Shown here in pieces: positions 35,616 to 52,977 of a DNA stretch of 64,000 nucleotides. How positions within the stretch are numbered: position 1 is the first letter of the stretch; every line of letters begins with the position of its first letter. A model generated the notes under the pieces. The model was not told the DNA's origin. It made no database searches and saw only the letters and a program-made list of their open reading frames with translations. A program made the position numbers and the translations under genes. Source of the DNA: Conoideocrella luteorostrata (taxonomy: Eukaryota; Ascomycota; Sordariomycetes; Hypocreales; Clavicipitaceae); NCBI GenBank assembly GCA_032433595.1, contig JASWJB010000016.1, positions 211,061-275,060 on the forward strand. The letters are read 5' to 3'.

Positions 35616-36313
35616 ATGTTCCCTCGCTACCAAGCCATCAATCTACCTCGTCTCAGCAAAGGGTTTGGGCCGAATTTTAGATTCTGTTGGTATCACAGCG
35701 CGATTGCCAAGTTCACCACGATAGATTCAAAGGGTACATCTGTTTCCTGCGATACCGGGATCATGGTTGGCGAACCTAACGAGAGCTATGTGTATATTGA
35801 GCCCGAGGTAGGGAACGCCATCAAATCCGCGGTTACTCACCAACTTGGGTCGGTTGTGGCAGGCCATCCCAAAACGCTTCCCCTCCAGTTTTACCACGGT
35901 TCCAATCACTTCGCTCATAGTGAGTATTGTCTAGAGTTTGATAGGTTGTATGCATCTTAACATATCAGAATCCACACCGCTCCCTCGCATTGATGTATAT
36001 CGAAATTTGGGTAAGTCAAATTGCCATAGTAGCCCCGCCACGCTCTGGCTATCAGGCAACTGGCACGCTATCACGCTCGATGGAACACCTGATGGTAAGT
36101 ATTTCATAGCCTAGTGAGCCGTTGAACAAATCTAATGGGTCATCTGTCTTTAAATTACAGAGAGCTTTGAACGAATGTCGAGAGAAAGCGCCAGTGAACT
36201 CAATGGCGCGTTGGACAAGCTGAAAGACAGCTAGTAAGTATGGCTTAAGTAAACGAGCTAGGTCATCAACATATAGTTCCACAAGAGCAACCAACCTCAT
36301 CGGGCAATGGTGA
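35616..36313 (+). CDS. Small multi-exon protein of unknown function
   Basis: The exons are 35616-35919, 35969-36010, 36056-36094 and 36161-36234 (152 residues). Alternatively the last exon ends at 36233 and is followed by a fifth exon 36277-36313 (164 residues, ending ATNLIGQW). The splice signals are strong (GTGAGT...TCAG, GTAAGT...TCAG, GTAAGT...ACAG) and every junction stays in phase, which argues for a real gene despite two introns of only 48 and 45 nt. Exon 1 begins directly after an in-frame stop. No domain is recognised. Visible are a mixed alpha/beta N-terminal part with VYIEPEVGNAIKSA and a C-terminal amphipathic helix (ESFERMSRESASELNGALDKL). There is no signal peptide, membrane segment or catalytic motif. 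It is on the same strand as, and about 550 bases before, the GMC oxidoreductase. Confidence 0.6.
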
Positions 36314-36859
36314 GGAGCAGCTTAAGGAGCATTGCTGAGCCTTCCACTCTGTGCGTAAACGTCGGCCCTTTTGGAGACCAAGTTTTGAGACGGGCAGTAT
36401 AGCCCAAGAAACGCAGCAACTCTCATAAATAAAACTGGTCGAATATATCAGACAACTTGATGGTAGTCATGACCATCACTGCCACAATTTTTTAAGGCAC
36501 CAGCTTCCAGCCCCCCACTCCTGCTTTTGTAGTCTGAAGCAGTCTTTCTGATCGCTGGCGGGTACACTTTCTCCTTTAAATCGATGATGAGTACAGGGTA
36601 GGAAACTGTCAGGTGTATACTCACCATGTCCGCTACAGAACTCTACCGGGCGGCCCCGTTGCGTCTCCAGCGCCATACGCCGCCAGACCGGGGGTCAAGT
36701 CTTCGAGCGAGCAGGATCAGCAACAAGTGAGACGGATTCATTACTAAAAGAGTCGCTAGCCGAGGTTTCCATCATTCTAGCCAACATGTCACCGACGGAC
36801 CAAACAAACCTGTCCAGCAATTTTCAAAGACGGAAAGTTTAAACTGCATCTCTGGCAAC
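36314..36859. promoter_or_regulatory. Promoter region of the GMC oxidoreductase
   Basis: Spacer of about 550 bases between the small unknown gene and the GMC start codon. No gene is seen and no specific binding site is recognised. Confidence 0.4.
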
Positions 36860-50675: not shown

Positions 50676-51470
50676 CGTGAGATTCGTATTTCAGCCGGCC
50701 GAGATTACGGCAAATGCTGCTGTCTATACAGGCTGTCTATAGTGAAATACAGTGCGCTGAGAAGCTATCATCTTGAGCTCCCTACACCCACTGCTGCAGT
50801 GCCTTCCGCCGTGCCCTCCGCCAGTCTCCGGTCTTCCTTGTCTTCTGAACATCCTGTGAACCCCACGTTGCATCTCTCTGGTTCTACGAAATAAACCCAA
50901 CTGCCTATTGCCGCCACCGGGACACGCCATTCGCTCCAGCTGGGTCTTTCGCAGCGGCTGAAGCATGCTTCTTGGTGGTGGAGGAGAGGAGAGGGGGAGG
51001 GACGAGAACAGTGGTGGAAAGCTTCTCAGATACGTCACTGTACTCCGTAAAAGCTCCCTCGACATGGGTACTCCCCAGTCCAGAGGATTACTCGGTCTTG
51101 CATTATGGCACTCAGTAACTGCTCTTGCGCATAAGAAGGGGGGTATATGGAGTAACTACAGAGGACTACTCCGCATGTACATACTAGTACGTGTGTTTTC
51201 CGCGCAGCCACCCCTGCATGTGCATATACGGTCTGCATCTGCATGCTTTTGCTGCTTCTGCCATAGATTTCCATAAAAGATTGTGCAAAAAAAAAAAAAA
51301 AACAAAAATTAGAGCGGATAAACAATCTGTGAACGCTGCGGATACGTCTGGCACATAAAGAAAACAGAGTCTTCTCTGCACGCGGTGCTTCGACCTCCCC
51401 CAGACTATTACATCCAGTAAGGTAGGTATCTCGCATTTGACCCTTCGACCAACTAACTCTCCATTGCATC
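50676..51470. promoter_or_regulatory. Spacer upstream of the adenylate-forming ligase
   Basis: An 800-base spacer between two same-strand genes. It has an A16 run at 51287-51302 and a TACTCCGTA word at 51041. No gene is seen. Confidence 0.5.
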
Positions 51471-52977
51471 ATGACGCTCCAAAACTATCCTCTGCAAAAG
51501 GTCCTTGCGGTGGCCAAAATTCACCCTTTTTACAAACCAGCCGTCCAGTATCCACCAGACCTCGAGACCATCCGGACAATCCAAGAGCAGTCGGCAGAGG
51601 AGCAGTCAACAAGCGCTGCCTTCAAGTCGCAGCCTCTACTTCATAAAAAAGACCTGTAAGATTCTCGGTGGCGTTGAAACGAAAGCTCGGCTCTGACTTA
51701 TTAGCTACACGTCTATTGAGCGTCTCGTCAATGACACGAGCCCTCAGAACACCTACCGTCACAATGTCTACGCCAGTATCACTGGAGGCGGGTTTGGGGC
51801 GAAACCTTTGTTCTTTGGGACAGACGTGCAGGAGAATCGCAGACATAGGGCCCAGTTTGGTGAACTCCTTCGAGCTACAGGAGTGGTCAGCCATGGAGAC
51901 TGGATCCTCACGACGCACTGCTCTGGCGAGCTCTATAGGTAGGTGTTCCGTGTCGGTGAGGGACAACCGGGGTGTATAATTGCTGACCATCAAACTAGAT
52001 CCCTAGACCTCATGTTAGAGATTCTAGAGAATGGCGGAGCTTCTGTCCTCAGCGCTGGGAACCACATGTCTCCAGAAGAGGTCATTCATCTTCTGATTAA
52101 GTATCACATCAACGTCCTGACTAGTGACAGTAGTCAGGTGGCCCAAATAATATTCAACATCTCAAGACTTCCACAAGAATCGCGGGACCTATTAAAACTA
52201 GACAAGATTATTTATACCTCAGAAGTACTTACTGCCGCTCAGAGGGCACACATTAAGGCCGTCCTCGGCAACAATGTCAAAATCTGCTCGGTAATGGGCA
52301 GCGCCGAAGCAGGTCCCTGGGCGCTAAGTAATCCAGATCTTACTGGTGAGGAGATTCGCCCAGGGGAAGCAGACTTTATTTTCGACACGCGGGCCATGCT
52401 AGTCGAGATCCTTTCTCCATCGCTTGCAGAGGGTGACTCGGATCCCGACCCCGTGCCAGAAGGGCAAAATGGCATTGTTGTTCAAACATCCCTATCACGC
52501 CTGCGCAATCCGCTCGTTCGCTACAACACAGGCGATATTGGATCTCTTCGTCCTCTCCCAACACAGGCCAAGTCTTTGCTTCCCGAAGATTATTGGCCGT
52601 TCTTGCGCGTGCTTCGTTTTCAAGGCCGCGATCGCCGCTTTAGCTTCGACTGGGATGGGGAGTACCTTAATTTCGCAGACTTAACAGCCCTGATGAATAA
52701 TGAGGACTGTGGTGTCCTGCAGTGGCAGGTCATCTTGGACAAACTACCGCAGTCGTTGGAGTCAACCCTCGAGATTCGGTTACTGCGTTCCTCCCAAACC
52801 GATGGACTTCTTTCCGAGAAAGATCTTACCGAGCGAATCAGAACTTTTGTTCATGCGTATTCCGCGAATGACCACCGATTCCGGCTCACTTTGGTTCATA
52901 ATCTGGATGGATTCGAGCGAAGCGCTACAGGAAGAAAAGTCGTGAAGTTCATAGATCGCTATTGCGATGCCGTTTAG
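51471..52977 (+). CDS. PaaK/ANL-type adenylate-forming ligase
   Basis: Three exons, 51471-51655, 51705-51938 and 51999-52977, with introns GTAAGA...TTAG (49 nt) and GTAGGT...CTAG, give 465 residues. The splices join DL-YTSIERLV and ELY-RSLDLMLE. Adenylation core motifs are visible. YASITGGGFGAKPLFF is the phosphate-binding loop (A3). SVMGSAEAGPW is at the A5 position, NPLVRYNTGDIG at A7 and FQGRDRRFSFDWDGEYLNF at A8. A C-terminal ATGRKVVKF stands where the catalytic Lys of A10 is expected. The overall form resembles phenylacetate-CoA ligase-like (PaaK) enzymes rather than NRPS A domains, and there is no carrier protein attached. It would activate a carboxylic acid as an acyl-adenylate for CoA or amide formation. 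Substrate unknown. It is the last recognisable cluster gene. Confidence 0.82.

What the first reader, a model, noticed from the sequence alone, without database searches (positions are those of the whole stretch)
35616..52977. Candidate NRPS/PKS-independent biosynthetic gene cluster
Within 17 kb lie an HDO-type diiron enzyme, a 2OG/Fe(II) oxygenase, a GMC flavin oxidoreductase, an AspRS-like protein, a probable ATP-grasp ligase, a PaaK-like adenylating enzyme and a small unknown protein. No assembly-line synthase is present. Three distinct carboxylate-activation chemistries (aminoacyl-adenylate, acyl-phosphate, acyl-adenylate) with three redox enzymes fit a pathway that activates, couples and oxidises amino acids without a carrier protein. 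Two head-to-head gene pairs suggest shared promoters. A cluster like this, lacking core genes, would be missed by standard cluster finders. I do not know a described pathway with this set.
Basis: partly seen in the sequence, partly recalled or inferred. Interest (0 to 1): 0.88.

Follow-up and report, generated by a model that had tools for sequence, protein, structure and literature searches.

The report
E-64-like cluster with repurposed tRNA-synthetase
An insect-killing fungus carries a small gene cluster that appears to stitch small molecules together with the two kinds of coupling enzyme known from the protease inhibitor E-64, next to a former tRNA-charging enzyme that seems to have lost its tRNA-reading ability and may now help to build an unknown compound.

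Summary
The observation largely holds: six enzyme genes lie at 36.9-53.0 kb of a Conoideocrella luteorostrata contig, with no assembly-line synthase; the "small unknown protein" has no support. The "probable ATP-grasp ligase" is a full-length homologue (50% identical) of Cp1B, the E-64 ligase, and the PaaK-like gene beside it fits the Cp1D-type amide bond synthetase. Yet this is not an ordinary E-64 cluster. It lacks the TauD-type oxygenase that accompanies this pair in a second cluster of the same genome (contig C105) and in two bacterial operons found here. Instead it has an isopenicillin-N-synthase-like 2OG oxygenase and an AspRS paralogue. That paralogue's family keeps most of the aspartyl-adenylate site, but of 31 members none keeps more than two of four anticodon-reading residues, and F127 is gone in all 31. 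The oxygenase and AspRS-like genes travel together in ascomycetes (contigs of equal length in 13 of 18 shared species). With the ATP-grasp they share such contigs in two Metarhizium species. Best reading: this pair makes or modifies an aspartate-type building block that is then coupled E-64 style. Product unknown; membership of the HDO and GMC genes untested.

The parts
42844..43783 (+). IPNS-like 2OG-Fe(II) oxygenase, 267 aa, 3 exons (42844-43100, 43167-43200, 43271-43783); QQS21_001575
45106..46776 (-). AspRS-like protein without the usual anticodon residues, 476 aa if the second intron is read as GC-AG (exons 46776-46732, 46670-45987, 45891-45617, 45532-45106); QQS21_001576 is annotated as 471 aa
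49072..50675 (+). Cp1B-type ATP-grasp ligase, 487 aa, 3 exons (49072-49401, 49471-49707, 49779-50675); QQS21_001577
   Evidence: PDB 9cjn Ligase Cp1B E 3e-159; residues R139, D141, E163, N165 of Cp1B conserved; 50% identity to P0315, which agrees with the 9cjn alignment
51471..52977 (+). PaaK-like adenylate-forming ligase, putative amide bond synthetase (Cp1D-type position), 465 aa, 3 exons
   Evidence: NCBIfam AMP-dependent CoA ligase E 3e-13 and PaaK E 4e-6, both below cut-off; 49% identical to its counterpart near the C105 ATP-grasp and 25% to a bacterial operon gene
39831..42125 (-). haem-oxygenase-like diiron protein with an N-terminal hydrophobic stretch, taken as one open frame of about 764 aa (my gene finder drew a shorter two-exon model, 39707-41909); membership in the pathway not shown
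   Evidence: open frame, PF14518 E 4e-35; two paralogues elsewhere in the genome, C23 and C66
36860..38841 (+). GMC oxidoreductase, 593 aa, 4 exons; membership in the pathway not shown
   Evidence: PF00732/PF05199

Best explanation
The core is a four-gene pseudopeptide cluster that needs no NRPS. The ATP-grasp ligase activates an acid as acyl phosphate and joins it to an amino acid; the PaaK-like ligase then adenylates that product and joins it to an amine, as Cp1B and Cp1D do for E-64 (inferred from homology and gene pairing). One partner is not simply E-64's fumarate-derived epoxysuccinate from a TauD-type enzyme of the cluster. It is made or modified by the IPNS-like 2OG oxygenase together with the AspRS-like enzyme, which would still bind and adenylate aspartate or a close analogue but pass it to a small nucleophile instead of tRNA, as asparagine synthetase A does (inferred from residues kept and lost). 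The HDO and GMC genes may add oxidations, but that is untested.
For: Cp1B homology over full length with four functionally tested residues kept. ATP-grasp and PaaK-like genes are also paired on C105 of the same genome and in two bacterial operons. AspRS-like family (31 members v. 25 other AspRS): Q303, K306, D342, R485 and R325, E327, H334, F338, D471, E478, S481, G528, R531 (yeast numbering) are kept in 27 to 31 of 31, while R119, F127, Q138 and E188, each 25 of 25 in the others, are kept in 6, 0, 9 and 2 of 31 (window K, C, Q, A), and 30 of 31 lack the Lys-rich N-terminus. 2OG and AspRS-like lie on contigs of equal length in 13 of 18 species named in both lists and are annotated as one protein in A. 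fumigatus and P. cinerascens.
Against: No expression, metabolite or assay data. Of the 13 equal-contig species, 10 have no row with that contig among the 120 ATP-grasp rows listed (412 found; rows are 90% clusters with one representative), so the two pairs may be independent neighbours. In M. rileyi the AspRS-like and ATP-grasp tags differ by 118 (ED733_002925, ED733_002807), odd for a 163 kb contig unless tags are unordered. The orthologous ATP-grasp clade has four members, all Clavicipitaceae, and its wider placement is unresolved (support 0.04). No Cp1D sequence was available. E344 and R475, invariant in the other AspRS, are kept in 0 and 6 of 31, and four family members have lost K306 and D342, so adenylation of aspartate itself is not certain.
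Confidence: 0.5

Rival explanations
1. Two unrelated neighbours: a 2OG + AspRS-like pair with its own product, and an ATP-grasp + amide bond synthetase pair that uses epoxysuccinate supplied from the C105 cluster.
For: The 2OG/AspRS-like pair is widespread, whereas co-location with this ATP-grasp clade is seen only in Clavicipitaceae. C. luteorostrata, M. album and M. rileyi, which carry the window-type ATP-grasp, each also have a second Cp1B-type protein (P0331, P0245, P0278); for C105 and P0278 a TauD partner is seen.
Against: In the window the four genes follow one another with no other predicted gene between them, and equal contig lengths recur in M. album and M. rileyi.
Confidence: 0.27
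2. An ordinary E-64-type cluster in which the IPNS-like oxygenase is the epoxysuccinate synthase and the AspRS-like gene is a bystander.
For: Same reaction types as cpA/cpB/cpD; the Cp1B phosphorylation residues are conserved.
Against: The oxygenase beside the ATP-grasp on C105, in M. rileyi P0278 and in both bacterial operons is TauD-type (Pfam run on one of the two bacterial copies). No TauD trace in the window; the window oxygenase gives no blast match to the TauD proteins; its 100 hits name no Fusarium, Trichoderma, Botrytis or Colletotrichum, genera with Cp1B homologues.
Confidence: 0.12
3. All six genes, including HDO and GMC, form one pathway.
For: Contiguity between a thioesterase gene at 33 kb and pyruvate carboxylase at 55 kb.
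Against: HDO or GMC co-location in other genomes could not be tested; HDO has two paralogues in this genome, with no ATP-grasp or PaaK-like match on those contigs.
Confidence: 0.25
4. The AspRS-like gene is a self-resistance copy of the target of an AspRS inhibitor made by the cluster.
For: Resistant aaRS copies of about 30% identity are known from bacterial antibiotic producers (PMC9437257, passages).
Against: A replacement synthetase must charge tRNA, but the anticodon residues are lost across the family; a yeast AspRS E188K change is lethal (PMC9976931, passage).
Confidence: 0.05

Closest known systems
E-64 clusters cp1/cp2 of Aspergillus flavus (PMC12568646)
   Same: Cp1B-type ATP-grasp ligase beside a PaaK/ANL-type ligase; an Fe(II)/2OG oxygenase in the locus; no NRPS
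   Different: Oxygenase of another family (IPNS-like; E-64's is TauD-type by my inference); an AspRS paralogue lies between oxygenase and ligases; the genome's only listed PF02784 decarboxylase match is on another contig
Bacterial ATP-grasp / PaaK-like / TauD operons in MAGs titled 'Candidatus Obscuribacter sp.' and 'uncultured cyanobacterium' (L060, L059)
   Same: ATP-grasp 25% and PaaK-like ligase 25% identical to the window genes (L059 copy)
   Different: Compact operon with TauD-type oxygenase; no AspRS-like gene among the neighbouring frames (my reading)
Asparagine synthetase A (AS-A)
   Same: AspRS-derived enzyme that hands activated aspartate to a non-tRNA acceptor (PMC9437257 passage)
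   Different: AS-A lacks the tRNA-binding domain; here the N-terminal barrel remains, without its anticodon contacts
ErdS, ergosteryl-aspartate synthase
   Same: Fungal AspRS-derived enzyme with a role outside translation (PMC9437257 passage)
   Different: ErdS charges tRNA and carries a DUF2156 transferase; the window protein has no such domain. An ErdS-like protein (PF00152 + PF09924; that PF09924 is DUF2156 is recalled) is on C122

Membership tests
E-64-type (cpA/cpB/cpD) cluster | Cp1B-type ATP-grasp ligase | tested here: met
   E 3e-159 to PDB 9cjn, R139/D141/E163/N165 conserved, 50% identity to P0315
E-64-type (cpA/cpB/cpD) cluster | Cp1D-type amide bond synthetase next to it | tested here: inconclusive
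   PaaK-like by weak NCBIfam/PDB matches and by pairing; no Cp1D sequence was available to compare
E-64-type (cpA/cpB/cpD) cluster | cpA epoxysuccinate synthase; TauD-type by inference from C105, P0278 and two bacterial operons (the paper text I read gives no family) | tested here: not met
   tblastn of two TauD proteins against the window found nothing at E 1; the window oxygenase has no blast match to TauD proteins
E-64-type (cpA/cpB/cpD) cluster | product t-ES-amino acid-amine | not testable with these tools
   needs metabolite analysis
Aspartyl-tRNA synthetase | class II catalytic core and aspartate pocket | tested here: met
Aspartyl-tRNA synthetase | anticodon recognition residues (R119, F127, Q138, E188) | tested here: not met
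   window K, C, Q, A; in 31 family members 18 keep none, 9 one, 4 two of the four
Aspartyl-tRNA synthetase | score over the NCBIfam AspRS cut-off (models made for prokaryotes) | tested here: inconclusive
   P0102 scores 300 against 368; two other fungal AspRS pass (634, 489 bits), but the C227 AspRS of this genome, which keeps the four residues, also fails (325), so the cut-off does not discriminate
Asparagine synthetase A | absence of the tRNA-binding domain | tested here: not met
   N-terminal strands present in the model, alignment to 1asy starts at its residue 83
ErdS | C-terminal DUF2156-type transferase domain | tested here: not met
   PF00152 only
Haem-oxygenase-like family PF14518 | domain score over the Pfam cut-off | tested here: met
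   121.7 bits v. 28.9

The most novel reading that the evidence does not exclude
A widespread but undescribed fungal biosynthetic module, an IPNS-like 2OG oxygenase plus a tRNA-independent ligase evolved from AspRS, makes an aspartate-derived reactive building block; in Clavicipitaceae it has been joined to the E-64 ATP-grasp/amide bond synthetase pair to give a new class of pseudopeptides.
Probability: 0.4. Interest if true: 0.78.

Novelty: new variant of a known kind. Interest (0 to 1): 0.62.

Why it matters
It would give a fungal case of an AspRS recast as a stand-alone ligase in secondary metabolism, and a second building-block route feeding the E-64 coupling enzymes, which their discoverers value as biocatalysts. 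The 2OG/AspRS-like pair is easy to recognise by sequence, so it offers a genome-mining hook for clusters without a core synthase in insect-associated fungi, Aspergillus and others.

Tried and rejected
Rejected: the 35.6 kb ORF as a cluster gene; loss of a catalytic aspartate in the window AspRS-like protein, which turned out to be an annotation gap at a GC-AG intron; tRNA or Rfam genes in the window (none found); a TauD remnant in the window (none found). My first argument that the AspRS-like protein fails NCBIfam AspRS cut-offs was weakened by its control: the genome's C227 AspRS fails them too. Led nowhere: AspRS-family scan of viral contigs, ATP-grasp scan of genome contigs and of plasmids, a search of 386 genomes of the phylum of G001 (only G001 matched), paper searches for the gene set. 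The 2OG scan of genome contigs gave three bacterial oxygenases at 21-24% identity with no AspRS-like, ATP-grasp or PaaK-like match in their flanks; the genomes behind L052 and L053 held the ATP-grasp operon on contigs of other lengths.

Not possible: gene neighbourhoods in other fungi (no fungal genome collection was open to me), so linkage rests on contig lengths and locus tags. All three protein searches went to 2OG, AspRS-like and ATP-grasp, none to HDO, GMC or the PaaK-like gene. 5 of the 18 shared species had different contig lengths (Seiridium cupressi, Bathelium mastoideum, Beauveria bassiana, Aphanocladium album, Parastagonospora nodorum); some of these rows come from different strains or bins. 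For the AspRS residue counts I took the window protein, P0102-P0132 and P0134, less P0122 and P0124 (length), and 25 other rows chosen by hand as housekeeping-like (list); P0140, P0143 and the fused proteins were not included. Of the genome's 16 PF00152 matches I read the genes on C12, C122, C125 and C227 and the window's own; C60, C147, C345, C426 and C471 were not read.
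Full report
What is there. The window is G000:C16:211061-275060 of a 46.4 Mb assembly. Public proteins identical to three window genes name it Conoideocrella luteorostrata, a scale-insect pathogen. The genome note for strain ARSEF 14590 (not shown to be this very assembly) reports 48 antiSMASH clusters and, in the part I read, does not mention this one (PMC12352038, first of two text parts). 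A home-made gene finder and Pfam give, from left to right: GMC oxidoreductase (36860-38841, +), haem-oxygenase-like diiron protein (39831-42125, -), 2OG-Fe(II) oxygenase (42844-43783, +), AspRS-like protein (45106-46776, -), a protein without Pfam domain (49072-50675, +) and a second without one (51471-52977, +). Left of it lies a 4HBT thioesterase gene (32700-33341), right of it pyruvate carboxylase (from 54796). No gene was predicted in the 2.3 kb between the AspRS-like gene and the next.

The ATP-grasp ligase. The first unnamed protein matches PDB 9cjn, 'Ligase Cp1B', from end to end (E 3e-159). Cp1B makes the first amide bond of the cysteine protease inhibitor E-64: it phosphorylates (2S,3S)-epoxysuccinate and joins it to a hydrophobic amino acid; Cp1D, an adenylate-forming amide bond synthetase, adds the amine; Cp1A, a 2OG oxygenase, makes the epoxide from fumarate (PMC12568646: abstract, sections 4, 6-9 and 12, part 1 of the extended data, and found passages). 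The four residues whose mutation harms Cp1B are conserved in the window protein; pocket position F175 is His in it and in the eight other homologues compared. The window protein is 50% identical to P0315 of A. flavus, which agrees with the 9cjn alignment. In a FastTree tree of the listed homologues the window protein and three Metarhizium proteins (70-73% identical) form a clade with support 1.0, apart from the Cp1B and C105 clades; deeper nodes around it are unresolved.

The PaaK-like ligase. It scores on AMP-dependent CoA ligase and PaaK models well below their cut-offs (E 3e-13 and 4e-6). It is 49% identical to its counterpart on contig C105 of the same genome.

The AspRS-like protein. Public and home-made models skip a conserved 'FTVLDIA' stretch because the intron starts with GC; read as GC-AG, the frame contains the sequence seen in relatives. 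I compared 31 family members with 25 housekeeping-like AspRS: 98 of 141 columns conserved in the latter keep their majority residue. In yeast numbering, mapped through 1asy, aspartate-site residues Q303, K306, D342, R485 and ATP-site residues R325, E327, H334, F338, D471, E478, S481, G528, R531 are kept in 27-31 of 31. R119, F127, Q138 and E188, each 25 of 25 in the others, are kept in 6, 0, 9 and 2 of 31; 18 members keep none of the four, 9 one and 4 two. F127 stacking on the anticodon, the Lys-rich N-terminal extension and lethality of E188K are from PMC9976931 (passages); the roles of the other numbered residues are recalled. The Lys-rich extension is absent in 30 of 31 (P0105 has a long N-terminus). 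None of the rows P0101-P0143 shows the anticodon-binding Pfam domain PF01336 that many, not all, of the later AspRS rows show. The flipping loop changes (E281 to Pro/Ala in 26, G283 to Asp in 31 of 31); E344 becomes Ala/Gly in 30 and R475 Gly in 24 of 31. Four members (P0129, P0131, P0132, P0134) have also lost K306 and D342. The genome holds another AspRS (C227, 599 aa) that keeps R119, F127, Q138 and E188, a mitochondrial-type AspRS (C125; my reading) and an ErdS-like protein (C122; PF00152 plus PF09924). NCBIfam cut-offs do not help: the C227 protein fails them as the family does. I conclude that the window protein very probably does not charge tRNA and may act like asparagine synthetase A, which hands activated aspartate to ammonia (PMC9437257, passages).

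Linkage. My typed tables name 30 species for each of the 2OG and AspRS-like families; 18 are in both, and in 13 the two genes lie on contigs of equal length, with consecutive locus tags in C. luteorostrata, Akanthomyces lecanii, Cordyceps javanica and Lecanicillium saksenae. In A. fumigatus and Penicillium cinerascens the two are annotated as one protein, which may be a gene-model artefact but shows adjacency (Pfam on P0133). Against this: in M. rileyi the tags of AspRS-like and ATP-grasp differ by 118; in Akanthomyces muscarius the listed Cp1B relative and the 2OG gene are 644 tags apart; and 10 of the 13 equal-contig species have no row with that contig among the 120 ATP-grasp rows listed of 412 found.

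How it most likely works. Shown by sequence: gene content, Cp1B homology, retained and lost residues, linkage as far as contig lengths show it. Inferred: acyl-phosphate coupling by the ATP-grasp, adenylation and amidation by the PaaK-like enzyme, tRNA-free aspartyl transfer by the AspRS-like enzyme, and oxidation of a small acid, aspartate or the AspRS-like product by the oxygenase. Not known: substrates, product, and any part for HDO and GMC. The searches listed no paper that, by title and abstract start, describes this AspRS-like/oxygenase pair; the E-64 paper's main text holds 'tRNA' once, for another enzyme, and neither 'haem', 'heme oxygenase' nor 'GMC'. That library lacks most subscription journals and preprints.

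Noticed in passing
window 45892-45986 (-): Intron of the AspRS-like gene with a GC-AG boundary; the public model QQS21_001576 appears to miss a conserved stretch because of it.
   Followed up: yes
L042/L043, C105:85630-91290: A second ATP-grasp / TauD-type oxygenase / PaaK-like cluster in the same genome, likely a canonical E-64-type cluster.
   Followed up: yes
L044/L045, C348:21967-23478: A third, interrupted Cp1B-type ATP-grasp copy in which the region of the conserved HDKRM motif was not seen; no partner genes found nearby.
   Followed up: partly
L059 12600-15882 and L060 about 10300-13500: Bacterial ATP-grasp / PaaK-like / TauD-type operons, beside a transporter-like gene (my reading of the frame).
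   Followed up: partly
proteins P0129, P0131, P0132, P0134 and, by eye, the A. fumigatus fused protein P0133: A subset of the AspRS-like family has also lost K306 and D342 of the aspartate pocket, suggesting another substrate.
   Followed up: partly
window 48828-48948: Two tandem copies (60 nt, 93% alike) just upstream of the ATP-grasp gene.
   Followed up: no
C23:157426-159732 and C66:7121-9388: Two paralogues of the window's haem-oxygenase-like protein, about 44-49% identical over the part compared; the C66 copy lies near an aminotransferase-like and an ABC-transporter-like gene (my reading).
   Followed up: no
C227:11350-13344 (L050): An AspRS that keeps the anticodon residues but scores under the NCBIfam AspRS cut-offs and ends in an unusual motif 3 region (YYPRTP); whether it is the housekeeping cytosolic enzyme was not settled.
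   Followed up: no
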